In this document: positions 28,340 to 43,617 of the stretch, in pieces
Position numbering within the stretch: the first letter of the stretch is position 1
Layout: every line of letters begins with the position of its first letter
Assembly: GCF_000717875.1 (NCBI RefSeq)
Contig: NZ_JOCT01000037.1
Coordinates: forward strand, 1 to 58,608
DNA: 58,608 nucleotides
Origin: Streptomyces sp. NRRL S-455
GTDB taxonomy: Bacteria > Actinomycetota > Actinomycetes > Streptomycetales > Streptomycetaceae
Reading direction: 5' to 3'
Notes under the pieces: model-generated
Told to the model about the DNA's origin: nothing
Seen by the model: only the letters and a program-made list of their open reading frames with translations
Databases searched by the model: none
Made by a program: the position numbers and the translations under genes

Positions 28340-28382
28340 GTGCCCCCGGCAGGATTCGAACCTGCGACACCCGCTTTAGGAG
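28340..28382. other. attL core of the AICE
   Basis: 43 bases identical to 43544-43586, running from just after the tRNA 3' end to the anticodon loop (ends TTTAGGAG). Beyond 28382 the tRNA sequence is lost, so this copy is not a tRNA gene. Confidence 0.95.
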
Positions 28383-29533: not shown

Positions 29534-30251
29534 GCGTGAGCACCGCATTAGGAGAGAGGCGGGGGAGTGGGGGCGCTGACCTGGAGCTTCGATACCTGGT
29601 CGGGCCACCGGGAACTCGACCGCGAGGCACCCCCGTTGACCGCGGCTGACCCCTGCATCTGGCACGGCAGTGGCACGAACCTCAGCCGACGACAGTCAGC
29701 CACGACGGCGGGTGCTCAGCCGCCTGTCCACGTGTGTGCCTCGCTTGATCCTCACCGGCCTCAGTTACGTTGTCGAAGTCGTCGACCAGAGCAAGTCTCG
29801 ACGGTCAGCGCCTGACTACAGGCGGCCGGTCGAGTCCATGCGGAGGGCCGAAGGTGAGTCGCGCGCGTTTCCATATGGTGCTCAGTCGGCACCTTAACTG
29901 CGCTTAGACGCCTACTCAGTTGGTCGGGAGGCTCGCTGTTGTGATCACCGGCGGCCTGTGCGTATCCTGCTACCCCCGAAGCCCCGTTCCGGGAGCCTAG
30001 GCATAGAGCACGGGCAACAGTCCATCCCGCAGCTCTGTGGGTGAAAGTGGTCTAGGAAGACCAACGACAACTGACACGCTGGAACGCTTGACGAGTTGTA
30101 AGCGCATGGACTGGCGCGAGGCGACTCGACCGACTCCTCTGGAGGCTGCACCCGCACGGGTGCCGCTCATGAGGAGGCCACACTAGAGGTGGCCGGTCGA
30201 GGCTTTGCGCGCTCAACCGGTTGCCTCCCCTAGGGGAAGGAAAGAACCGGG
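29534..30251. other. 718 bp without a recognisable gene
   Basis: Short frames on both strands lack ribosome sites and family-like motifs. The composition is less biased than in flanking core DNA. It may hold decayed cargo or untranslated RNA. Confidence 0.4.
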
Positions 30252-30527
30252 GTGAGCCCCAACCGGAAGAAGGCCCTCGCCGTCTTTGTGCTCTTTTTGG
30301 TCGTGAACCTTGTCGCCGTTGTCTGCGGCCACGTAGTCCGTTGGCTCGGGGGCGGCGTGCTTCAAAGCGTCCTGACTGGTGCCGGCGCCTGGGCGGTCCT
30401 GATGACCCTCGGCGTCACCCTCATCGCGCTGTTCGACTTCAAGGACGACCGGCATCCCATACCGGCAGGTACCGGCCACGGAACAGCGCAGGCGCCGCCG
30501 AACCAGCAGGGGACGCCAATTGCCTGA
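30252..30527 (+). CDS. Small two-helix membrane protein (AICE cargo)
   Basis: 91 residues from GTG 30252, with a GGGGAAGGAAAG site close upstream. Two hydrophobic helices (ALAVFVLFLVVNLVAVVCG; GAWAVLMTLGVTLIALF) end in a polar tail. No family recognised. Its reading frame continues open past the TGA for another 50 codons (see the next entry). Confidence 0.6.
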   Translation: MSPNRKKALAVFVLFLVVNLVAVVCGHVVRWLGGGVLQSVLTGAGAWAVLMTLGVTLIALFDFKDDRHPIPAGTGHGTAQAPPNQQGTPIA

Positions 30528-30572
30528 GCTACCACACCGGGCAGGACTGATCGCATCGAGGCACACCCGACT

Positions 30573-30686
30573 GTGGCGGAGTTGATCGCCGACAAGCAGG
30601 CCGAGCTGACCTCGGTCGGCCAGCTTCATCAATACAGCTGGAAGCAGAGCAAGCCGCGGTGGCCAGCACGTGCTGATAGTGCCTGA
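30573..30686 (+). CDS. Possible short peptide or broken gene end
   Basis: In the same frame as the preceding membrane protein, directly after its TGA, a coding-like stretch reads RIEAHPTVAELIADKQAEL, then TSVGQLHQYSWKQSKP, and stops at 30686. GTG 30573 is the only start. Either a 37-residue peptide, a remnant, or a readthrough extension. 30687-31000 shows no gene. Confidence 0.25.
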   Translation: MAELIADKQAELTSVGQLHQYSWKQSKPRWPARADSA

Positions 30687-31000
30687 GCCCCCGGCTTGGG
30701 AAGCTGCGGCGCTCTGCGCTCCCTAAGACGCTGACCTGCACATACAGCTGGCGTGCCCTTCGTCGGGCTCGATCGTTCTCACCGCCACTCCCCGCTGTTC
30801 CCCGCTCGTTCTGGTGCGCTTGTGGTCCAGAGGCCGAGCACTTCTGCGGCTCAAAGTCGGCCTAAACATCGTGGCGACGGTGCGGATGGACGGTCGGTCA
30901 TCGATGCCTCTGGGAGCAACTCCTGCCATATGGGCTGGTCATCGACTGACCGCACGGTACCGTGACAGGTCGGTCATCGTGCGTAAGAAGGAGGGGGACG

Positions 31001-31948
31001 GTGCCGCAGCCAACCAACCGCAGTAAGGCCATCCGCCCGGCCGCGTACACAGCGCTCGTCGAGGCGCTGACCACGATCTACTGGAACAAAGATCCTTTTG
31101 AGCTGTACGTCCGAGCAATGTTGAAGAACCACAGCGAACTCCTGGCACAGCTGAGCTTCCAGTCGTCCACAAAGCGGGAGGTGTCCGGCCAGTTGGTCAA
31201 CTTGCTGCAAGCTAATGAAGCCCGGTACCTCGACCTGACGGTCGCACTCATGCTCGATATCGCCGACATGGAGACCTTCCCTAACCTGACTTCCCAGCAG
31301 GAAGGCGAAGAGAAGGTAGCCAAAGCGACGGCGGCGGTTGCGGAGTTGAGGCGTTGGACTGCAAAGCAGCGGGAGGTCATCGCGGAGCATGAGGCGCACG
31401 CGGTCGCTATCGCGGAGAGCGCCAAGCAGGCTCAGGACGGCCGTGCGTTTGCCCAGGCGCATGAGGAGTTGAAGCAACAGTTCATCGCGATGCACTCGGC
31501 TACCAGTCCGCAGCAACGGGGGAGGGATTTCGAGGGCTTCATCAACGAGCTGTTCGCCCTATATGACCTGGAGCCGCGGGCGGCATACAGCCTGGACCAT
31601 GAGCAGATCGACGGAGCGTTCCTTTTCGACACTGACCACTACGTCCTCGAGGCAAAGTGGTGGAAAGAGGCCGTCGGCCGTCGTGAGCTGGACGTCTTCA
31701 AGAGCAACATCGAGCGCAAGGCCAAGAACACCCTCGGCCTCTACATCAGCATGAGCAACTTCACCTCGGACGCCCTGACGGTCTACAGCCTCAGCACGCC
31801 ATTTATGACGATGGATGGAGGCGACTTCATGGCTGTGCTTGACCAACGCATACGCCTGGACGACCTGATGCGCCGCAAGAAGCGGCACGCGAGCGAGACA
31901 GGGCACTGCTTTCTATCCGTCTCAAAGATCCTCTCTGAGTCGGACTGA
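31001..31948 (+). CDS. Mrr-like PD-(D/E)xK restriction endonuclease (AICE cargo)
   Basis: 315 residues from GTG 31001, chosen because AAGGAGGGGG lies directly before it. Residues 1-150 are helical with a long coiled-coil-like part (AKATAAVAELRRWTAKQREV). Residues ~165-300 are an Mrr_cat-type nuclease: QQRGRDFEGFINELFALYDL, then EQIDGAF with Asp204, and YVLEAKWWKE with Glu217 and Lys219, the complete D-x12-E-x-K site. Mrr-type enzymes cut modified or foreign DNA, or act as effectors of defence systems with a separate sensor domain; here the helical half may sense or oligomerise. No methylase gene is nearby. Confidence 0.8.
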   Translation: MPQPTNRSKAIRPAAYTALVEALTTIYWNKDPFELYVRAMLKNHSELLAQLSFQSSTKREVSGQLVNLLQANEARYLDLTVALMLDIADMETFPNLTSQQEGEEKVAKATAAVAELRRWTAKQREVIAEHEAHAVAIAESAKQAQDGRAFAQAHEELKQQFIAMHSATSPQQRGRDFEGFINELFALYDLEPRAAYSLDHEQIDGAFLFDTDHYVLEAKWWKEAVGRRELDVFKSNIERKAKNTLGLYISMSNFTSDALTVYSLSTPFMTMDGGDFMAVLDQRIRLDDLMRRKKRHASETGHCFLSVSKILSESD

Positions 31949-32022
31949 GTCCGGTCGCCGGCGTCAGTATTGGCAGTTCAGGGCTGCGGTTGGTTGGGGC
32001 TCGCGCCGATCATGTATGAGCG

Positions 32023-33003
32023 ATGGATAGGCGGATGAAAATGACAGATGGGCATGTTCCACAGGGAAGCACGTCCGAGAAGAGTGCTGTGCACCACCGC
32101 TGGCTCCGAGCTGTCGAACAGGACATACAGCAGGAGTACATGAGACTCCACGCTGAAGCTCGTTCCGACCCCCAGCGAGCCGGACACGGCGGTGAAGGGA
32201 CCTGGGCCAGAATACTTAGCGACTGGCTTCCGCCTAGTTATGAGGTGGCGACGAGGAGATACATCATTCCAGAGGAAGGCGACGATGTATTCGAAACGGA
32301 CCTCATTGTTTTCCGTCCTACATATCCGAGGGCGCTAAGATCACGGGAAGAAGTCCTGGCAAGTGGAGTGGCAGCTGCTTTCAGCGTAAAGTTAACTCTC
32401 AATAAGGATGGCATTCGCGACGGATTCGAGCGTGCGGCCAGAATTAGCAGAGGGGTCAAGGCAAGGCTTGGCAGCCCTCGCGAAGAGATCTCGTCTCCAT
32501 TACCTGTAGGGCTTCTGTCTCACTCGCACAGCTGGAAGGCGACTTCTCCCGGGCCTCAATTTGGAGTGCAATCTATCTGCAGAGAGATGGATAACCTTTA
32601 CGCCCAGCACCCTCGGGAAAGTCTAGACCTCCTCTGTGTTGCAAACCTGGGGGTCTGGAGCGTCTCTCGAGTACCCTTTCTCCCGCAAAAATTGGTTCAG
32701 CATCTTGACGCGGAAAAGGGCTGCAATTTTTCCCCGGGAGCTGTGATGACGTCCGTTATGCAATTGGACTCCCAGTCCCCGACGGTTGCTGTTTTCATCG
32801 CCTCTCTATATGAACGACTATCACTCACCGACCCAACTCTTCGTCCGCTTGCTGACGGTTTCAAAGCACTCGGAGACGCTGCGGGGGGTGGCGGTATGCC
32901 GCGTTTCTGGAGCCTTGAAGAGGTTTTTAGTGACGATGTGCAACTAGCATTGTCACGGGGAATCGTAAAGGCTGCCGACCCCAATTGGCGTCCCGTTTAC
33001 TAA
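32023..33003 (+). CDS. DUF6602-like protein with altered nuclease motif (AICE cargo)
   Basis: 326 residues. Residues ~25-135 resemble the DUF6602 nuclease-like domain: GHGGEGTWARILSDWLPPSY, TDLIVFRPTYP with Asp93, and AAAFSVKLTL. The usual ExK is here Ser121-Val-Lys123, so the catalytic acid seems lost. The C-terminal 180 residues are unassigned. GC and third-position bias are visibly lower than in the backbone genes. Two TTA codons (124 and 160) make translation dependent on the bldA tRNA. It lies 74 bp after the Mrr-like gene and 109 bp before the next one, same strand. The ATG at 32023 has a poor ribosome site; ATG 32038 is an alternative. Confidence 0.65.
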   Translation: MDRRMKMTDGHVPQGSTSEKSAVHHRWLRAVEQDIQQEYMRLHAEARSDPQRAGHGGEGTWARILSDWLPPSYEVATRRYIIPEEGDDVFETDLIVFRPTYPRALRSREEVLASGVAAAFSVKLTLNKDGIRDGFERAARISRGVKARLGSPREEISSPLPVGLLSHSHSWKATSPGPQFGVQSICREMDNLYAQHPRESLDLLCVANLGVWSVSRVPFLPQKLVQHLDAEKGCNFSPGAVMTSVMQLDSQSPTVAVFIASLYERLSLTDPTLRPLADGFKALGDAAGGGGMPRFWSLEEVFSDDVQLALSRGIVKAADPNWRPVY

Positions 33004-33112
33004 ACCTCAGGGAGTTAGAGATAGGCATGGCGCGCGCCTGTACCATCAGGCTGAAGTGGAAGCTTGCCTCTCAGGCATTGCTATGCCGCCTCTTTCCTGA
33101 TCTCATTACTAC

Positions 33113-34261
33113 ATGAACATTACTTACGCTTTTGGTGTGTGGAAGCAGGAGTCTGGCCAGCCCGGCATGGACGTTCGGATTGTCCACGAGATGTCTGAGG
33201 ATGAGTTCGACCGACATGTCGATGCTATCAGCGTGTACGAGGCATTGATTGAAAGAGGAGCGTTTTCGCTGATCCTTAGGAACTACTCGAACCTGCGAGC
33301 GATGGTGGACACTTTCGCAAACGTTGAGAGGTATGCTGGCGAGTTTCGGCAAGCGGATCGTGAAGTAGTGAAGGGAGCCCTGATGGCCGAACTCACGAAC
33401 TGGCTGGCGGCTACTCGCCTATACCTTGAGAATGAGCGAGATTTTATTCTTCGGGAGTTCGGTAAGGCGAGCGAGGAAATGTCTGAGTATAAGACCGCGA
33501 CGTCGTCTGCGTTCGACGGTCACGAGGGCTACCGATTTCTGTATAACTTGCGAGATTACACGCAACACTGTGGAATTCCGCCCGGTCGCATGCACGTCTC
33601 AGGGACTCGACCTGACAGGAATGTGGTGGTAGCTCTCGAAAGATCTCGCCTTCTCATGGCTCGGTTCAATTGGAGTTCCCATGCGAAGGCACTTCTGGAG
33701 AACTGGCCGGAGCAGATTCCTCTAATTCCTCTGCTCGACGATGCAATGGAGGGCTATGCCTCCATTGAGGAGCAGATGCTGCGAATTATAATCCGGCGTT
33801 GCGTTGTTGTTTCTCCTCTACTGCTGGATACCTTGCGGTCCGGCGATATAGGCGATGATAACCCCGCTGTTTTTCGAATTTCCGGAGAAGGGGGAGGCGA
33901 TCAGCCTATCGATTTTTCCATTCGAGCGATGCCGAGCGCTTTCGCGCTGGAGAAAGTCATGTCCGCTTCTGGAAATGCAGACCCTCTCGATTCTCTCCGA
34001 GTGCAAGAGTCTTCTCCGTCTCCTCGGATGCCGACAAGTGGGAAGAGGGCTTCCGCCGTGCTTTCCTCATTTTTTGTGGGCGGGGGCTCGCAGGCGGCTT
34101 CTGAAACGGTTAATAGGATTTTGCACGAGGATGGTGAAATCGGCCCGCTGATCAGTGACCTGATCAACATTTCGACCGTTCTTACAAGTATGTTGAGCCA
34201 GATCATGGGAGCCTCCCCGCATGCTCTTCTCGGTAAGTTGGGTGACTCCGACGCTGAGTGA
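33113..34261 (+). CDS. Unknown protein with HEPN-type R-x4-H motif (AICE cargo)
   Basis: 382 residues, mostly helical. Around residues 140-155 it reads YRFLYNLRDYTQHCG, giving Arg147-x4-His152, the signature spacing of HEPN RNases, preceded by long helices (FGKASEEMSEYKTATSSAF). Residues ~200-260 are another helical block, and the C-terminal 100 residues are Ser/Gly-rich with a last helix. HEPN proteins are common RNase toxins in abortive defence. The motif alone is not proof. Low GC and position suggest it belongs with the two genes upstream. Confidence 0.6.
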   Translation: MNITYAFGVWKQESGQPGMDVRIVHEMSEDEFDRHVDAISVYEALIERGAFSLILRNYSNLRAMVDTFANVERYAGEFRQADREVVKGALMAELTNWLAATRLYLENERDFILREFGKASEEMSEYKTATSSAFDGHEGYRFLYNLRDYTQHCGIPPGRMHVSGTRPDRNVVVALERSRLLMARFNWSSHAKALLENWPEQIPLIPLLDDAMEGYASIEEQMLRIIIRRCVVVSPLLLDTLRSGDIGDDNPAVFRISGEGGGDQPIDFSIRAMPSAFALEKVMSASGNADPLDSLRVQESSPSPRMPTSGKRASAVLSSFFVGGGSQAASETVNRILHEDGEIGPLISDLINISTVLTSMLSQIMGASPHALLGKLGDSDAE

Positions 34262-34266
34262 ACGAA

Positions 34267-34407
34267 GGGCGGCGGAGCGGCTTTGGGGTGGCGCTGCTTT
34301 GGCGCGAGTGATCATGGCCCCGTAAGCTTCCGGCGCGTCGGGCAGTCTGTGGACCTGCCCGTTAAAGCACGACGTTGGGGCCATGATCTTCGAGGCTCGC
34401 GCCAAAG
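34267..34407. repeat. Dispersed repeat, full copy B, with a large stem-loop
   Basis: Starts 6 bp after the HEPN-like gene. Two 12-bp perfect arms pair on each side: CTTTGGCGCGAG (34297-34308) with CTCGCGCCAAAG (34396-34407), and GATCATGGCCCC (34310-34321) with GGGGCCATGATC (34377-34388). An inner hairpin CGGGCA/TGCCCG lies in the 55-base loop. The first ~90 bases recur at 16062-16153. Confidence 0.8.
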
Positions 34408-34761
34408 TGGCTCCGTAAAGCCGTGGAGCCGACCGCCCCAGCCACGACGTGCCCTTTCTCTAGCGTCAGGTGGCTGATTGCTGTGCGCGCGGCACGGGCG
34501 CCGGCCGGGTTGGAGCGGGGCGGAGACAGGAGCGCAGGCCCGGCCGGGGGCCGGGCCGCGCGCGGTGAGCGGAGCGAGCCGCCTTGAACCAGTAGAGAAA
34601 GTTGTAACTCAGTCTGTGGTGGGGGGCGTGTCCGGTCCCGGTAGATGCTTGACACTTCGGTCCCAGCTGATGGTTGACAGTGGCCGTGTTCGGCTTTTCT
34701 GTGCGCGTCGTTGCGGCGTGTGTTGGGGCATGTGAGTAGGCGGTTGACGCAGGAGAGGACT
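34408..34761. other. Structured non-coding region
   Basis: 354 bp with several GC-rich complementary blocks (for example GCCGGCCGGG, CCCGGCCGGGGGCCGGG) and no credible frame. Together with the repeat before it, it looks like an RNA-forming or transposon-end sequence. TTGACA-like words near 34648 and 34673 could drive the next gene. Confidence 0.5.
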
Positions 34762-35212: not shown

Positions 35213-35593
35213 TCAGCATCCAGCGCGAGGCTTGAAGCCGTACGCACAGAGCGGGAGTTCGACCCCATGCCGGTGAGCTAGCGGCAGGAACAGCACTGGT
35301 CGAATCGTCCACGTGATGCGGGTGCTGGCGTGGGTCAGAGAGACTGTGCAGGGTTCCATGCGTAAGAGGGCTCGTCGCGTGTCGATGCGGCCGTCGTAGA
35401 GCCAGGCCCAGGCCTCGTCGGAAGCGTCCGGGTCGAGTGCCGGTGAGATGGTTCGCAGGGCGACCGCTACCCATCTGTCCGCCTGCGGTGCCGAGTAGGC
35501 GTCGAACGATGCCCGGAGTGCCGGCCACCCCTTCTCGTCGTTGACGTCCTGCGTCCAGCACTCGCACCAGAAGCCCCGCTGGGGCTTGTCCAT
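35213..35593 (-). CDS. Hypothetical protein coupled to the ATPase gene
   Basis: 126 residues. Its ATG overlaps the stop of the HATPase gene (TGATG), so the two are co-translated. It contains DKPQRGFWCECWTQDVNDE and two Trp-rich patches (DEAWAWLYDG, RITWTIRPVLFLPL). I know no family; the tight coupling suggests a partner or target of the ATPase-like protein. Confidence 0.6.
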   Translation of the reverse strand: MDKPQRGFWCECWTQDVNDEKGWPALRASFDAYSAPQADRWVAVALRTISPALDPDASDEAWAWLYDGRIDTRRALLRMEPCTVSLTHASTRITWTIRPVLFLPLAHRHGVELPLCAYGFKPRAGC

Positions 35594-36018
35594 CAGCGTG
35601 AGTGTCCTCCGGGCCGGGTGTCGGTGAACAGCTCGGCGGTGACGGTGTAGCCGCTGTGGCTGCCGTGGACGACGACCCGGTGTGCGATGACGCTGACCAT
35701 GCCCAAGCCGCGGCCGTGTACCGCGTCCTCGCTTGGCTGCTCGACCTTCGGGGCGGTGCCCGTTCCTCCCTCGTCGGTGACTGACAGGGCGACCACCTTG
35801 GGGGAGACCGCGAGGGCCAGGTGGAAGCTGCCGAGTCCGCCGCTCGCGGTGTGGAGGATCGCGTTCGCGCTCAGTTCGCTCACGATCAGCTCGGCGTCGT
35901 CGGCCAGGGGCGATCCGCGCAGGATGTCCCGCGTCCAGCGGCGGGCCCGGCTCACCTCTTCCGGAAAACCTGGGCAAGTGAGTCCCCAGACCCGGACAGT
36001 GCTCGTATACTCGTGCAT
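35593..36018 (-). CDS. HATPase-fold protein (SpoIIAB/RsbW-like)
   Basis: 141 residues from ATG 36018, chosen for its AAGGAA site rather than ATG 36048. It shows EELIVSEL-like ELIVSELSANAILHT (N-box with Asn), VTDEGGTGTAP (G1-box) and GRGLGMVSVIA (G2-box), the ATP-binding signature of the anti-sigma-factor kinase group. Such short ATPases are very common in Streptomyces and in AICE regulatory regions. A KorSA-like half operator (CTCGTATAC) lies at its start, so it may be controlled by the GntR gene. Confidence 0.85.
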   Translation of the reverse strand: MHEYTSTVRVWGLTCPGFPEEVSRARRWTRDILRGSPLADDAELIVSELSANAILHTASGGLGSFHLALAVSPKVVALSVTDEGGTGTAPKVEQPSEDAVHGRGLGMVSVIAHRVVVHGSHSGYTVTAELFTDTRPGGHSR

Positions 36019-36064
36019 ACAAGTTCCTTCGTGCTGGTAGGCCGCCATGTGCAGCGGGTTCGGG

Positions 36065-36496
36065 CTAGACGAGTTTCACGCCGTCGTGGGCGCGGATGGC
36101 CGGCGGGGATACCGCGTCGAGTGCGTCCAGGACGCGGATCGCGTATGCCTCGTCGGCGAGTTCGATGACCTCTTCGCGGGTGGCCCAGCGCAGTGCGCGG
36201 GTCTCGTCCCCGGTGGTGGGCGTGCCGTCGGCGGCCTCACAGCGGAAGACCATGGAGACGATCAAGCCCTTCATGTTCTTGTAGATCCCGGTCAGGGTCG
36301 CGGGAAGCGCGATCTTGATGCCGGTCTCTTCGAGAACCTCACGCTGGAGAGCTTCGGGGATGGTTTCCTCGCGTTCGAGGACTCCGCCCGGGGGTTCCCA
36401 GTGGCCATTGTCGCGGCGCTTGATCAAGAGGGCCCGGCCCTGGTCGTCGACGATGACTCCGGCGACGCTCACGGAGTGCGGACGGTCGGTGCTCAC
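36065..36496 (-). CDS. Nudix hydrolase, Pif-like
   Basis: 143 residues from GTG 36496 (AGAGGAAC site). The Nudix box is complete: GG-x5-E-x7-REVLEETGI (from GGVLEREETIPEAL on). In pSAM2 the Nudix-domain protein Pif blocks redundant transfer between cells that already carry the element, and its gene sits next to the KorSA-type regulator as here. A general nucleotide-cleaning role is the alternative. Confidence 0.85.
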   Translation of the reverse strand: MSTDRPHSVSVAGVIVDDQGRALLIKRRDNGHWEPPGGVLEREETIPEALQREVLEETGIKIALPATLTGIYKNMKGLIVSMVFRCEAADGTPTTGDETRALRWATREEVIELADEAYAIRVLDALDAVSPPAIRAHDGVKLV

Positions 36497-36551
36497 GTTC
36501 CTCTGCCCTCTCGGATGGCTAGGCTCTCCACCGTAGCAACAAAGCTCGCCC

Positions 36552-36567
36552 ACTCGTCTAGATACCT
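36552..36567. promoter_or_regulatory. KorSA-like operator upstream of the GntR gene
   Basis: ACTCGTCTAGATACCT shares the ACTCGTCTA half with the sites at 37430, 37503 and 40412. It lies 13 bp before the GntR start, between it and the divergent Nudix gene; autoregulation is likely. Confidence 0.65.
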
Positions 36568-36579
36568 AAAGGAGTACAC

Positions 36580-37368
36580 GTGCCCCCTCTTTCCTCCGGC
36601 CTCCTCGGCGACCTCGACCCCACGAGCGATCGTGCGGTCTTCCGGCAGATCGCCGACCAGCTGCGCGAGGCCATCGACCGTGGGCGATTCAAGGAGGGCG
36701 AAAAGCTGCCCTCCGAGGCCGAACTAGTCGAGCATTACGGGGTTTCCCGTATGACGGTTCGAAACTCCTTCTCCGTCCTCCAGGGCGAGGGCCTGGTGCA
36801 CGCCGAGCACGGCAAGGGCGTCTTCGTGCGACCACGACCGCCTGTACGGCGGCTCGCCTCCGACCGGTTCGCCCGGCGCCACCGCGAGCAGGGGAAGTCC
36901 GCGTTCATCGTGGAGGCCGACGCCGCCGGCAGTCACCCGCAGGTGGACAGCCTGGAGGTTAAGGAGGAGAAGGCCAGCCAGGAGGTCTCCACCCGGCTCG
37001 GGTCCGTGCGGCGAGTGCTCGCCCGGCGTCGCCGGTATCTGCTGGACGGGCGGCCGGTGGAGTTCGCCACCTCGTATCTGCCGCTCGACATCGCACGGGG
37101 CACGCCGATCGCCGAGCCGAACCCCGGGCCCGGTGGAATCTACGCACGCCTCGAGGAGCTGGGACACCGCCTCGACCACTTTGAGGAAGAGATCCGCGCC
37201 CGGATGCCCTCGCCCGACGAGGTGCGCACGTTGCGGCTGGCTTCCGGCGTGCCGGTCATTCACCTGATCCGCACGGCGTTCGACCAGGAAGGGCGGGCCG
37301 TAGAGGTCTGCGACACAGTCATGGCGGCCGACGCGTACGTCCTGTCGTATCAGCTCCCGGCGACGTGA
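36580..37368 (+). CDS. GntR-family (HutC subfamily) repressor, KorSA-like
   Basis: 262 residues from GTG 36580 (AAAGGAG upstream). N-terminal winged helix: VFRQIADQLREAIDRG, KLPSEAELVEHYGVSRMTVR, then a UTRA effector domain with YLPLDIARG and VIHLIRTAFDQEGRAVEVCD. In pSAM2, KorSA is a GntR repressor of pra and its own gene, and its loss triggers transfer. The repeated ACTCGT...ACGAGT operators around this gene and before the downstream operons fit such a master switch. Confidence 0.88.
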   Translation: MPPLSSGLLGDLDPTSDRAVFRQIADQLREAIDRGRFKEGEKLPSEAELVEHYGVSRMTVRNSFSVLQGEGLVHAEHGKGVFVRPRPPVRRLASDRFARRHREQGKSAFIVEADAAGSHPQVDSLEVKEEKASQEVSTRLGSVRRVLARRRRYLLDGRPVEFATSYLPLDIARGTPIAEPNPGPGGIYARLEELGHRLDHFEEEIRARMPSPDEVRTLRLASGVPVIHLIRTAFDQEGRAVEVCDTVMAADAYVLSYQLPAT

Positions 37369-37533: not shown

Positions 37534-37890
37534 TTGCGCACCATCCGTGTAGAGACCTCCGCCGCGACGATCCTGCTGACCGAGGCGCCCGAGCCCAAGG
37601 TCCGCGACCGGCAGACGGGCGAGATCGCCAAGGACGCCACCAGCGGAGAGGCCCTGATGACGATCGGCGTCGTCTACCTGGAAGACGGCGAGTCGTCGCT
37701 GATCAAGGTCACCGTTCCGGAGAGTGGAGTGTCCGAGGGGCTCACGCTCGGGGCTTCGGTCTCGCTGCCGGGGCTGGTGGCCCGACCGTGGGAGAGCGTC
37801 TTCAACGGGCAGCAGCGGCACGGCATCGCTTACCGCGCCGCCGCCGTGACACCGGCCGTGTTCCCGGCCACCACCGGGGCCGCTGCCTGA
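37534..37890 (+). CDS. SCO3933-family regulatory protein
   Basis: 118 residues from TTG 37534 (GGGAAGAAG site). Matches the small AICE protein family seen before TraB genes: RDRQTGEIAKDATSGEALMT, TVPESGVSEGLTLGASVSL, ARPWESVFNGQQRHGIAYR. Its biochemical role is not known; it may bind DNA or the translocase. The stop overlaps the translocase start (TGATG). Confidence 0.82.
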   Translation: MRTIRVETSAATILLTEAPEPKVRDRQTGEIAKDATSGEALMTIGVVYLEDGESSLIKVTVPESGVSEGLTLGASVSLPGLVARPWESVFNGQQRHGIAYRAAAVTPAVFPATTGAAA

Positions 37891-39266
37891 TGACCGACCT
37901 GACGACACTCCTGGAAGTGGGTGGTCCTGTCGCCGCACTCGGCGGCGGGGCCGCCTACGCCCGGGCCAAGCACCCCGGGGTGTACTGGTCCACGGTCGGC
38001 CTGCCGATATCCACGGCCCGGCTCCTCAGCTCCTACGGCTCGGTCATGGAGGCCTGCGGCCTGACCGTGGCTCCGTCCCGGCTGCGGATGCTGGCGGTCA
38101 AAGCCACCACGCGCCGTGAAGTCCGGCCCGTACCGCCGCGTCGGGGCATCATCCGGCCCACCTCGACCGGGCTGCGGCTGCGGCTCCGGCTCGCTCCGGG
38201 GCAGGAACCAGCCGACGTCGCCGCCTCGGCGGAACGGCTGCGGCACGCCTGGGGCGTTCATGCGGTGTACGTCTCGACGGTCAAGCCGGGTGTGGTCGAA
38301 CTGCGTCTTGTCGGCTTCGATGTCCTGCACCGGGTGCGGATGCCCCGCAAGATCGACAGTGGATTGCTGAGCGTTCCGGTTGCCCTGCGGGAGGACGCCA
38401 CGCCCTTCGTGCGCGACTACCGGACCGTGCCCCACCAACTCACCCTCGGCGCGACGCTGTCGGGCAAGTCCATGTATCTGCGGCACCTGATCGCCGGACT
38501 CGCCTCTCAGCCGGTCGCCTTGGTCGGCATCGACTGCAAGCGTGGTGTGGAGCTGGCACCGTTCGCTCCTCGGCTGTCCGCGCTGGCTACCGACCCGGAG
38601 CAGGCCGCCGAGCTGCTGCCCGTGCTTGTGAAGGAAATGGAGGACCGATACGACCTGATCAAGGCCCGGCAGGGCATCGCCCCGGACACTCCGGCCGAGG
38701 AAATCACTTCGGACGTCTGGGGACTGCCCGACTCCGAACGCCCCGTTCCCCTCGTTCTGTTCGTGGACGAGGTCGCTGAACTCTTCCTCGTCGCCACCAG
38801 GAAGGACGAGGAACGCCGGGACGAGATGGTCACCCAGCTCATCCGGCTCGCCCAACTCGGTCGCGCGGCTGGCATCTACCTGGAGGTCTGCGGGCAGCGC
38901 TTCGGCGCCGAACTCGGCAAGGGCGCCACCATGCTGCGAGCGCAGTTGACGGGTCGCGTCTGCCACCGGGTGAACGACGAGGCCTCCGCGAAGATGGCGC
39001 TCGGCGACATCGCACCCGAAGCGGTCACGGCCGCCTGCGCCATCGCCCCCGAACGGCCCGGCCTCGCCGTGGCCGGTGACACCTCGGGCGGCTGGTCCCG
39101 CATCCGCACGCCGTACTTGTCGCTGGGCGACGCGGCCGAGACCTGCCGCGAGTCGGCCCACCTGGTTCCCGACCTGCCCGCGCTCAAGCCTTTCCGGCCC
39201 GACGTGCCCGTACGGCCCGTCGAGACACCGGGCCCGGCGGTGCGGCCCCGACCGGTGACCGACTGA
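37890..39266 (+). CDS. FtsK/SpoIIIE-type conjugative DNA translocase (TraB/TraSA)
   Basis: 458 residues from ATG 37890. One short hydrophobic segment near the N-terminus may anchor it in the membrane. Walker A GATLSGKS (residues 187-194), Walker B LVLFVDEV (~286-293) and the FtsK-like end AQLGRAAGIYLEVCGQRFGAEL are intact. In Streptomyces a single hexameric FtsK-like pump transfers double-stranded plasmid or AICE DNA between mycelia. It is shorter than pTraB of large plasmids but typical for AICEs. Confidence 0.92.
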   Translation: MTDLTTLLEVGGPVAALGGGAAYARAKHPGVYWSTVGLPISTARLLSSYGSVMEACGLTVAPSRLRMLAVKATTRREVRPVPPRRGIIRPTSTGLRLRLRLAPGQEPADVAASAERLRHAWGVHAVYVSTVKPGVVELRLVGFDVLHRVRMPRKIDSGLLSVPVALREDATPFVRDYRTVPHQLTLGATLSGKSMYLRHLIAGLASQPVALVGIDCKRGVELAPFAPRLSALATDPEQAAELLPVLVKEMEDRYDLIKARQGIAPDTPAEEITSDVWGLPDSERPVPLVLFVDEVAELFLVATRKDEERRDEMVTQLIRLAQLGRAAGIYLEVCGQRFGAELGKGATMLRAQLTGRVCHRVNDEASAKMALGDIAPEAVTAACAIAPERPGLAVAGDTSGGWSRIRTPYLSLGDAAETCRESAHLVPDLPALKPFRPDVPVRPVETPGPAVRPRPVTD

Positions 39267-40780: not shown

Positions 40781-42139
40781 ATCATCACCCGCGCCACTCC
40801 GCCCCCGCTCCACGAACTCGGCGAACTGGCCGCCCTGGGCACCATGCCCGCACTTCTGCGCCAGCTCGCCGGCCTCGGCGGCTGCACCCACCCGATCCGC
40901 CTCGACGGCCACCGCATCGAGTACGACCTGAACACCCGCACCGGCGAGATCGGCAACGTCCTCCACCACCTCGACTCCTCCAGCCTCCCGGCCGGTCACC
41001 TCCTGGTCCGCTGCAACAACCGCCGCACCACCCGCTGCGCGGCCTGCGCCGAGGTCTACCGCCGCGACACCTTCCACCTGATCACCAGCGGCCTGCGCGG
41101 CGGCAAGGGCGTCCCCGAACGCGTCGCCGCCCACCCGCGCGTCTTCGCCACCTTCACCGCTCCCAGCTTCGGCCCGGTCCACAACCGCCCCACCGGCCAG
41201 GCCGGATCGGTCCGCCGCTGCCGCTGCGGCACCGTCCACGACCAAGACGACCCCGCCCTCGGCACCCCCCTCGACCCGGACACCTACGACTACGAAGCAG
41301 CCGTGCTCTGGAACGCGCATGCCGGTCCGCTGTGGCGGCGCTTCTCGACCTATCTGCGCCGGGAGGTCGCCAAGCGCGCTGGCCTGGCGCAGCGGGCCTT
41401 CCGCGAGCACGCCCGGGTGTCCTTCGCCAAGGTCGCCGAGTACCAGAAGCGCGGGGCCGTTCACTTCCACGCCGTGATTCGCATCGACGGACCTGAGGGC
41501 GGCGACACCCCGCCCCCTGCCTGGGCCACCGCCGAGTTGTTGACCGACGCCATTCGGGCAGCCGCCACCGCCGCTCGCGTGGACGGACCGGTCATCGACG
41601 GCCGCGCCCACACCTTCACCTTCGGCCGCCAACTCGACGTCCGCACCATCCGCTCCGCCGACTTCGACGGCGGCCAAGAGCTGACCGAACGGGCCGTCGC
41701 CGCGTACATCGCGAAGTACGCCACCAAGGGTGCCGAGACGGCCACCGGAGCTCTGGACCGGCCGCTGAAGTTCCTCGCCGAACTCGCCCAGCTCGACATC
41801 AGCGACCACGCCCGCCGCCTCATCCGCACCGCATGGACCCTCGGCGCCTACAAGGACCTCGAACACCTCCGCCTGCGGGCATGGGCCCACATGCTCGGAT
41901 TTCGCGGCCACTTCTCCACCAAGTCCCGCCGCTACTCCACCACCCTCGGCGCCCTCCGCGACGCCCGCGCCGAATGGCGCCGCGCACAAGCCGCCGCAGC
42001 GGCCGAGACCGACCAGGACACAACCCTCGTCCTCGCCCACTGGGTCTACGCCGGAACCGGCCTCACCGACGCCGAAGCCTGGCTCGCCGAAACCCTCGCA
42101 CCCGCCCCCGGAACGGAAGGAGAACCCACCCGTGCATGA
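40781..42139 (+). CDS. AICE replication initiator (RepSA-like)
   Basis: 431 residues from the first ATG (40844), or 452 if translation starts at ATC 40781, which sits right behind AGAAGGAGAAGCC and begins ITRATPPPLHELGELAALGT. No ATG, GTG or TTG lies between. The protein has a Cys cluster (CNNRRTTRCAACAEVYR; CRCG), the metal-type motif HFHAVIRIDG and YIAKYATKG near the likely nicking Tyr, as in rolling-circle initiators of pSAM2. It lets the excised circle replicate. The stop overlaps the xis start. Confidence 0.88.
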   Translation: MITRATPPPLHELGELAALGTMPALLRQLAGLGGCTHPIRLDGHRIEYDLNTRTGEIGNVLHHLDSSSLPAGHLLVRCNNRRTTRCAACAEVYRRDTFHLITSGLRGGKGVPERVAAHPRVFATFTAPSFGPVHNRPTGQAGSVRRCRCGTVHDQDDPALGTPLDPDTYDYEAAVLWNAHAGPLWRRFSTYLRREVAKRAGLAQRAFREHARVSFAKVAEYQKRGAVHFHAVIRIDGPEGGDTPPPAWATAELLTDAIRAAATAARVDGPVIDGRAHTFTFGRQLDVRTIRSADFDGGQELTERAVAAYIAKYATKGAETATGALDRPLKFLAELAQLDISDHARRLIRTAWTLGAYKDLEHLRLRAWAHMLGFRGHFSTKSRRYSTTLGALRDARAEWRRAQAAAAAETDQDTTLVLAHWVYAGTGLTDAEAWLAETLAPAPGTEGEPTRA

Positions 42140-42314
42140 CGACGAGCTGCTGACAGTGCCCGACGTGATGGCGCGGTTGAAGCTCGGCCGGTCCACGGTC
42201 TACGACCTGATTCGGTCTCGTCGCCTGCCCTCGATCACCATCGGCCGGTGCCGCCGCATTCCGGCACGGGCCGTCCGCGAGTACATCACCAACGAACTGG
42301 AGGCGGCGGCCTGA
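42132..42314 (+). CDS. xis: Excisionase (Xis), MerR-like helix-turn-helix
   Basis: 60 residues from GTG 42132 (GGAAGGAGAACC). One HTH: LLTVPDVMARLKLGRSTVYDLIRSRRLPS, written here in two overlapping halves as LLTVPDVMARLKLGRSTVYD and LIRSRRLPSI, then a basic wing. Directs the integrase toward excision. Overlaps rep by 8 bp and int by 1 bp (TGATG). Confidence 0.88.
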   Translation: MHDDELLTVPDVMARLKLGRSTVYDLIRSRRLPSITIGRCRRIPARAVREYITNELEAAA

Positions 42315-43465
42315 TGGCCCAGCAACGCAAGCGGAACCCCAACGGGGCGGGCACCATCACCAAGCGCAAGGACGGCCGCTTTCAGTGCGCGGTCTACGTC
42401 CTCCAGCCGGACGGCACCCGTGCCCGCAAGTTCGCCTACGGCAAGACCTGGGCGGAGTGCGACGCCAAGCGCCGCGAGCTGCTGGACAAGGTCGACCAGG
42501 GCGTGCCCGTGCCCACCAAGTCGGCCAAGCTCTCGGAGTGGCTGCCGTACTGGCTGGACAACGTCATCAAGCCCCGGCGGAAGCTCGGCACGTTCGACAA
42601 GTACGAGGCGCACGTCCGGCTCTATCTGGTGCCGCTGCTCGGTGCCAAGCGGTTGGAATCCCTCGGCGTCGCCGACGTGCGCCGGTTCCTCGTCCGCCTG
42701 GAGAAGGAGACCACGGCAGCAACTGCCAAGGAGTCGCACCGTGTTCTGCGGTCGGCGCTGTCCTCGGCCTGCCGCGAGGAACTGATCACGCGCAACGTCG
42801 CCAAGCTCGTGGAGCCTCCGCGCACCGACTCACGGGAGCTGAAGCCGTGGACGCTGGACGAGACGCTTGACTTCCTCGCGGCGTCCCGGCGTGACCCGCT
42901 CTACGCGGCCTTCGTGCTCGCCATCACCATGGGCCTTCGCCGGGGAGAGATCGTCGGCCTTCGCTGGTCGGATGTCGACCTCGACGGCCGTGTCCTCCAC
43001 GTGCGTCAGCAGACGCAGCGGCGCCGGGGCGTCCTGTACGACGACGACCCCAAGAGCCGCCGTCGCCGTGCCGTCCCGCTGCCCGCGCTCTGCATCGCGC
43101 CTCTGCGCTGGCACCGGATGCGGCAGGCGGCTGCACGTGCCAAGGCGGGGGAGGGGTGGCAGGAGTCGGACTACGTCTTCACCACCCGCACCGGGCGCCC
43201 GGTCGAGCCGCGGAACGTCTACCGCTCCTTCACCCGCGTCGCCCAGTCCGCCGGCCTCCGCGTGATCCGGCTGCACGACGCTCGCCACGGGACGGCCACG
43301 CTCCTCACGGCTGCCGGAGTCGCGCCCCGCGTTGTGATGGAGATCCTCGGGCACTCTCAGATCAGCATCACCATGGACGTCTACACCCACGTCGTCCAGG
43401 ACACGCAGCGCGAAGCCATGAGCCACATGGATCGCCTGCTCAGGAGACGCCCCATCCGCGCGTGA
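42314..43465 (+). CDS. int: Tyrosine-recombinase integrase of the AICE
   Basis: 383 residues from ATG 42314. It has an N-terminal arm-binding domain (NGAGTITKRKDGRFQCAVYV), a SAM-like core-binding domain, and the catalytic domain with Arg209 (MGLRRGEI), His321-Asp-Ala-Arg324 and Tyr357 (MDVYTHV), so the active site is complete. It lies 79 bp from the attR core, the normal place. It integrates the circle into the tRNA-Arg gene and, with Xis, excises it. Confidence 0.94.
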   Translation: MAQQRKRNPNGAGTITKRKDGRFQCAVYVLQPDGTRARKFAYGKTWAECDAKRRELLDKVDQGVPVPTKSAKLSEWLPYWLDNVIKPRRKLGTFDKYEAHVRLYLVPLLGAKRLESLGVADVRRFLVRLEKETTAATAKESHRVLRSALSSACREELITRNVAKLVEPPRTDSRELKPWTLDETLDFLAASRRDPLYAAFVLAITMGLRRGEIVGLRWSDVDLDGRVLHVRQQTQRRRGVLYDDDPKSRRRRAVPLPALCIAPLRWHRMRQAAARAKAGEGWQESDYVFTTRTGRPVEPRNVYRSFTRVAQSAGLRVIRLHDARHGTATLLTAAGVAPRVVMEILGHSQISITMDVYTHVVQDTQREAMSHMDRLLRRRPIRA

Positions 43466-43472
43466 CCGCCCG

Positions 43473-43497
43473 CGTTGATGTCAGATGTGGATGTCAG
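43473..43497. promoter_or_regulatory. Putative arm-type integrase binding site, right
   Basis: CGTTGATGTCAGATGTGGATGTCAG, 22 of 25 bases shared with 28466-28490, 46 bp from the core. Confidence 0.55.
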
Positions 43498-43538
43498 AAG
43501 GGCCCCACCTCCGAAATTTCGGAAGTGGGGCCCTTCTG
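43495..43538. terminator. Bidirectional terminator between int and tRNA-Arg
   Basis: A 44-bp palindrome with one mismatched pair: CAGAAGGGCCCCAC (43495-43508) pairs with GTGGGGCCCTTCTG (43525-43538), and CCGAAATTTCGG forms the centre. It can end both the integrase mRNA and the opposing tRNA transcript. Confidence 0.85.
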
Positions 43539-43543
43539 AGCTG

Positions 43544-43586
43544 GTGCCCCCGGCAGGATTCGAACCTGCGACACCCGCTTTAGGAG
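43544..43586. other. attR core of the AICE
   Basis: 43-bp copy identical to attL. Covers the tRNA-Arg 3' end, T arm, variable loop and anticodon stem up to the anticodon loop. Confidence 0.95.
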
Positions 43587-43617
43587 AGCGGTGCTCTATC
43601 CCCTGAGCTACGAAGGC
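43545..43617 (-). tRNA. tRNA-Arg (anticodon CCT)
   Basis: The minus strand folds to a complete cloverleaf of 73 nt: acceptor GCCTTCG/CGGGGGC, D arm AGCTCAGGGGATAGAGC, anticodon loop CTCCTAA, T arm GCAGGTTCGAATCCTGC, discriminator A, no encoded CCA. The AICE regenerated the 3' half on integration. Confidence 0.95.

What the first reader, a model, noticed from the sequence alone, without database searches (positions are those of the whole stretch)
31001..34261. Three-gene nuclease/HEPN cargo island in an AICE: candidate undescribed defence system
Three collinear genes with short gaps (74 and 109 bp) and lower GC than the AICE backbone: an Mrr-like protein with complete D204...E217-x-K219, a DUF6602-like protein, and a helical protein with Arg147-x4-His152 typical of HEPN RNases. 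DNA nuclease plus HEPN RNase on a mobile element is the usual composition of abortive or anti-MGE systems, and I know no named system with this trio. Co-function is inferred from order and composition.
Basis: partly seen in the sequence, partly recalled or inferred. Interest (0 to 1): 0.8.

Follow-up and report, generated by a model that had tools for sequence, protein, structure and literature searches.

The report
Three stacked immune-like genes, not one system
A mobile DNA element of a soil bacterium carries, in a slot where its relatives carry other genes, three probably unrelated immune-type genes, one of which looks like a DNA-cutting enzyme whose active-site acid has moved to a new place.

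Summary
The three ORFs are real and lie where stated, inside an AICE bounded by a 43-bp att repeat in a tRNA-Arg gene. They fill a cargo slot: DNA shared with sibling AICEs resumes two bases after the third stop codon. Of 20 siblings with both slot flanks, 18 hold other genes there. The 'three-gene system' fails its own test: none of 21 loci of gene A holds B or C, none of 18 loci of C holds A or B, and a related AICE carries a C homologue inverted and without A or B. A is an Mrr-type nuclease. C is an unnamed family with an invariant R-D/N-x3-H motif placed as in HEPN RNases; its fold match is inconclusive. B is the most interesting: a long relative of the CBASS nuclease NucC. In its clade the ExK glutamate is gone (0 of 121), while the residue two before the catalytic Asp is always Glu (121 of 121). 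In 15 of 16 NucC/DUF6602 proteins from elsewhere it is Gln with ExK intact; the 16th groups with B. E...ExD...K is the permuted active site of restriction enzyme PfoI, so B is probably an active nuclease. Best reading: independently acquired immune nucleases stacked in one slot. Function is untested.

The parts
28340..28382 (.). distal att repeat of the AICE (43 bp)
   Evidence: identical to 43544-43586; same 43-bp core in 5 of 20 sibling loci with a repeat pair taken as att: L069, L071, L074, L081, L095
43544..43586 (.). proximal att repeat, inside tRNA-Arg (CCT) 43542-43617 on -
30827..34262 (.). cargo slot holding A, B and C; left edge between 30826 and 31000
   Evidence: sibling DNA reaches 30826 on the left and resumes at 34263 on the right
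34263..34630 (.). right flank of the slot
   Evidence: found in 36 of 41 loci compared; starts at 34263-34267 in 11 of the 20 with both flanks
29541..30826 (.). left flank markers (29541-29819, 30554-30646, 30687-30826)
   Evidence: 20 of 41 loci have at least one left marker and the right flank in the expected order
31001..31948 (+). gene A: Mrr-type PD-(D/E)xK nuclease, D204, E217, K219
   Evidence: Mrr_cat 32.9 bits; conservation in 121 sequences
32023..33003 (+). gene B: long DUF6602 protein, NucC fold, permuted active-site residues E58, E91-x-D93, K123 (S121 where NucC has Glu)
33113..34261 (+). gene C: helical protein with invariant R147 and H152 (R-D-Y-T-Q-H), HEPN-like
42314..43465 (+). 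tyrosine integrase (name recalled)
   Evidence: ORF beside att; relatives in sibling loci
40844..42139 (+). replication initiator, RepSA-like (name recalled)
   Evidence: ORF and relatives in sibling loci
37890..39266 (+). DNA translocase, TraSA/FtsK-like (name recalled); marker used to find sibling AICEs
35593..37368 (.). backbone genes next to the slot: ATP-binding regulator (-), Nudix (-), GntR (+) (names recalled)
   Evidence: conserved in sibling loci

Best explanation
The island is the content of an exchangeable cargo slot in an AICE, in which three separately acquired, individually acting immune-type genes are stacked. A is an Mrr-type (type IV restriction-like) DNA nuclease. B is a DNA endonuclease with the fold of the CBASS effector NucC that stands alone; its catalytic carboxylate has moved from the ExK motif to the position two residues before the catalytic aspartate (E58...E91-x-D93...K123), as in restriction enzyme PfoI. 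C is a HEPN-like RNase that probably stops the cell or the invader by cutting RNA. Each would protect the host, and so the element, against phages or competing elements. Shown here: the slot, the independent distribution, B's fold match and the residue swap. Inferred: catalysis by B and C, what triggers them, and protection.
Confidence: 0.62

Rival explanations
1. The three genes form one undescribed defence system (DNA nuclease plus NucC-like nuclease plus HEPN RNase) recently assembled in this AICE.
For: Collinear, gaps 74 and 109 bp, one slot. A consensus scan found no promoter- or terminator-like site in either gap; the single one of each lies inside gene C.
Against: No recurrence seen outside the inferred near-identical copy; different codon-position-3 GC for A; C inverted and without A or B in a related AICE.
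Confidence: 0.12
2. B and C are a two-gene module and A is a separate passenger.
For: B and C share low GC and GC3; both seem to sit on one contig in Streptomyces sp. URMC 128.
Against: 18 C loci lack B, 2 genome B loci lack C; 84,616 is the only contig length shared between the printed B list (120 of 237) and C list, though cluster representatives can hide members.
Confidence: 0.13
3. B is a catalytically dead NucC relative that works as a binding or sensor protein.
For: ExK glutamate lost in 121 of 121; K replaced by R or T in 26 of 121.
Against: E58, E91 and D93 are each invariant in 121 of 121, and the loss of Glu at 121 goes with Glu at 91 without exception in the proteins compared; a dead site would be expected to drift.
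Confidence: 0.25
4. The genes are addiction toxins or decaying cargo kept by chance, as reported for many AICE cargo genes.
For: A study of AICEs found about half of the cargo genes shorter than 150 codons and took these as probable pseudogenes (PMC9513070, passages read).
Against: All three ORFs are full length against their relatives with intact conserved residues. An antitoxin was not searched for.
Confidence: 0.15

Closest known systems
NucC (CBASS and type III CRISPR effector endonuclease)
   Different: B is 326 aa instead of about 225-255; has an HxHxW motif absent from the nine short forms aligned; ExK Glu is Ser; the position two before Asp is Glu instead of Gln; no cyclase recognised beside it (by eye). 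All 7 short plasmid genes fetched, of 91 records matched, lie next to a CBASS-type gene (6) or are annotated as CBASS NucC (1).
PfoI restriction endonuclease
   Different: Much weaker fold match than NucC; not among the PDB sequence matches up to E 10; B has no known recognition site.
Mrr-type nucleases (PF04471)
   Same: Mrr_cat domain with D204, E217-x-K219 in A.
   Different: The rest of A (residues 1-173) matches no Pfam family above its cut-off; its neighbours vary.
HEPN RNases (HepT, Abi-type HEPN)
   Same: Rx4-6H motif with D/N after R, at the end of a helix, acid on an earlier helix.
   Different: No Pfam, NCBIfam or PADLOC HEPN model matches C at E<=1; one PHROG of unknown function matches at 29 bits; fold match inconclusive.
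AICE cargo variability in Streptomyces
   Same: AICEs of one family with different cargo are published (PMC9513070, passages read).
   Different: Here a slot and its flanks are placed to the base on the right side for one AICE type.

Membership tests
NucC (CBASS effector) | NucC fold | tested here: met
NucC (CBASS effector) | D...ExK active site | tested here: not met
   S121 in place of Glu; 0 of 121 clade members have Glu there
NucC (CBASS effector) | beside a CD-NTase or type III CRISPR | tested here: inconclusive
   none recognised by eye in the AICE, which was not scanned with cyclase models; none annotated within 4 kb of 7 long B-like plasmid genes, from an incomplete gene table
NucC (CBASS effector) | activation by cyclic tri-adenylate | not testable with these tools
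   needs biochemistry
DUF6602 (PF20247) | profile above cut-off | tested here: met
   61.1 bits, cut-off 27
PfoI-type permuted active site | E...ExD...K residues | tested here: met
   E58, E91, D93 in 121 of 121; K123 is K in 95, R in 25, T in 1
PfoI-type permuted active site | spatial clustering of these residues and catalysis | not tested
   no model coordinates in the Python box (file list)
HEPN | Rx4-6H with polar residue after R | tested here: met
   R147 47/47, D 41 and N 6 of 47 after it, H152 47/47
HEPN | motif at the end of a helix and start of a loop | tested here: met
   helix 138-153 of the model ends at the motif 147-152
HEPN | acid on helix 2, often as Ex3[KR] | tested here: inconclusive
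   E/D106 in 44 of 47 on helix 83-116; helix numbering unsettled, Ex3[KR] form not seen
HEPN | HEPN fold | tested here: inconclusive
HEPN | RNase activity | not testable with these tools
   needs biochemistry
Mrr / type IV restriction | Mrr_cat domain with D...ExK | tested here: met
   32.9 bits, cut-off 21; D204 and E217 121/121, K219 97/121
Mrr / type IV restriction | cleavage of modified DNA | not testable with these tools
   needs biochemistry
One three-gene system | recurrent co-occurrence | tested here: not met
   A 0 of 21, C 0 of 18, B 0 of 2 genome loci with a partner; one near-identical B+C copy inferred
AICE | att repeat in a tRNA gene | tested here: met
   43 bp, tRNA-Arg
AICE | integrase, Rep and FtsK-like translocase | tested here: inconclusive
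   ORFs conserved as a block in sibling loci; their names were recalled, no family scan of the window's own backbone was run

The most novel reading that the evidence does not exclude
B belongs to a clade of active, stand-alone NucC-fold endonucleases (named members mostly Streptomyces, one on an Arthrobacter plasmid) in which the catalytic glutamate hopped once from the ExK strand to the position two before the catalytic aspartate, giving a PfoI-like E...ExD...K site and an immune nuclease no longer tied to CBASS or CRISPR signalling.
Probability: 0.5. Interest if true: 0.6.

Novelty: new variant of a known kind. Interest (0 to 1): 0.48.

Why it matters
If B is active it would show that the NucC fold is used outside cyclic-nucleotide signalling and that its active site can be rewired, which makes NucC and long DUF6602 proteins a clean pair for testing how catalytic acids relocate. 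A cargo slot with few known defence hits (2 of 10 proteins tested) is a practical place to look for new actinobacterial immune genes.

Tried and rejected
Trio as a system: rejected for lack of recurrence. C in plasmids, phages and viral contigs: no match. B in viral contigs: no match, and the same for a short DUF6602. C against PDB and BFVD: no Foldseek match at E<=0.001. A against PDB sequences: nothing at E<=0.5. A displaced acid at K+10 (D133; acidic in 120 of 121) was considered as the relocated carboxylate, as in the CCGG family PD...K...D/E (PMC551604 and PMC6344858 passages); E91 fits better because it swaps state with position 121 without exception, while an acid at 133 also occurs in 2 of 15 proteins with intact ExK. 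Enrichment of C beside defence genes: neighbours include AbiTii, TIR and AlbA_2 proteins and, one each among 86 neighbours, matches to DrmA, DrmB and HamA, but among 41 genes more than 6 kb away in the same loci there are defence matches too, so no enrichment is claimed. A beside HEPN-like genes (7 of 42 immediate neighbours, counted by eye, against 70 of 1415) is post hoc and partly the same families counted twice; left as a lead.

Rows dropped: 40 of the 47 best TraSA matches (own genome aside) were fetched, seven left out by hand, most near contig ends. Of 16 genomes with A, the own genome and four with broken or partial matches were left out; of 14, the own one, two already held and one split match. 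Relatives aligned: B 120 listed of 237, A 120 of 883, C all 46. Short plasmid DUF6602: 7 fetched by choice of 91 records (40 listed). The att pairs of 20 siblings were picked by hand; some may be wrong.

Not in print: searches for DUF6602 and for NucC with 'permuted active site' gave 0 papers in the library held, which lacks most subscription papers.

Full report
Observation. All three have close relatives elsewhere (93, 99 and 97% identity), so they are genes. They lie in an AICE bounded by a 43-bp repeat, one copy inside tRNA-Arg 43542-43617.

The slot. I took 40 of the 47 best matches of the AICE translocase gene (89-100% identity) with their surroundings. Of 20 siblings with a repeat pair taken as att, five share the window's 43-bp core. 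Aligned to the window, the backbone from about 35.5 to 42 kb is shared by 38 or more of 41 loci (40 siblings plus L008), while the stretch holding A, B and C is shared by none, except that one sibling (L086) has an A homologue about 6 kb outside its slot. Shared DNA resumes at 34263, two bases after C's stop codon, and on the left reaches 30826 at the furthest. Of 41 loci, 36 have the right flank and 20 have both flanks; the right flank begins at 34263-34267 in 11 of those 20. In 18 of the 20 the slot holds called genes of 100 aa or more, and in each of the 18 at least one has GC 0.56 or less; often it is one long gene (1080, 881, 850, 1221, 495 aa). In L069 the slot is 79 bp, and in L087 no gene lies wholly inside. 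Of ten slot proteins tested, two match PADLOC defence models at E<=1e-5 (a TIR protein, L065, and an OLD/AriA-like ATPase, L093). Among 97 cargo proteins of the 20 siblings with att pairs, RmrA, reverse-transcriptase and PDC-M02 models match one protein each. Variable cargo in AICEs of one family is published (PMC9513070, passages read).

Independence. A: 16 of 295 Streptomyces genomes at E<=1e-30 and 14 of 272 of the family at E<=1e-60, own genome included in both. In 21 full-length loci outside the window there is no B or C; for the ten this was read within three genes either side. B: 3 of 295; the two other loci have neither A nor C. C: 1 of 295 (the window itself); 7 of 394 of the class (the window, two strong matches whose contig lengths equal those of L006 and L007, and four weak or partial ones); and 18 loci from a pattern scan of 84,980 species genomes, none with A or B in the DNA held. 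L009, L010 and L011 of these are near-identical, and seven others match C at only 25-33% identity in other phyla (L015-L021). In Streptomyces sp. I6 (L008) the same AICE backbone carries a C homologue (42%) in the opposite direction with another gene beside it. One further record, Streptomyces sp. URMC 128, seems to hold both B and C on an 84,616-base contig; I did not fetch it, and whether A is there too is unknown.

Gene C. Of 16 positions identical in all 47 sequences, the charged ones and histidine are R102, R141, R147 and H152. R147-[D/N]-x3-H152 sits at the end of helix 138-153 in a good model (pLDDT 85.5), as described for HEPN (PMC3710099, passages read). The fold comparison is not decisive, and no named family matches; one PHROG of unknown function does, at 29 bits. 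Some neighbours are immune-type: AbiTii (L004), TIR and PIN (L007), AlbA_2 (L019); but genes more than 6 kb away in these loci also match defence models. That C is a HEPN RNase is likely, not shown.

Gene A. A carries an Mrr catalytic domain with its D, E and K. In five of the six closest relatives' loci a gene with R[NH]xxxH adjoins A, among them a Swt1-like HEPN above its cut-off in L044. This is a lead only.

Verdict. The finding is real as an observation. The proposed trio is better read as the current load of a cargo slot.

Noticed in passing
L044:10309-13624, L126: An Mrr relative of A lies next to a 366-aa protein with RHRIGH (Swt1-like HEPN by Pfam in L044), a second protein with RNSIVH, and in L044 a reverse transcriptase: a candidate RT-HEPN defence locus.
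   Followed up: partly
L045:10755-11300, L046:11024-11569: A 181-aa protein with RNACAH directly upstream of A in two genomes.
   Followed up: no
L117:1612-2607: Psychrobacter plasmid of 5.4 kb with a long DUF6602 gene besides RepM, MobV, a RelB/DinJ-type antitoxin and two hypothetical genes: hints at a role in plasmid competition.
   Followed up: no
L113:3977-8405, L114:3977-8469: Acetic acid bacteria plasmids carry a long DUF6602 gene about 2.5 kb from an Abi family gene and near transfer genes.
   Followed up: no
G000:C23:77287-78657: A second TraSA relative (83%) in the window's own genome, so probably a second AICE.
   Followed up: no
window 43494-43539: Near-perfect inverted repeat between integrase and att site, probably a terminator.
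   Followed up: no
L063-L102 slots: Slot genes with no PADLOC match at E<=1e-5, such as L063 1080 aa, L095 850 aa and L097 1221 aa, are unexplored candidates.
   Followed up: partly
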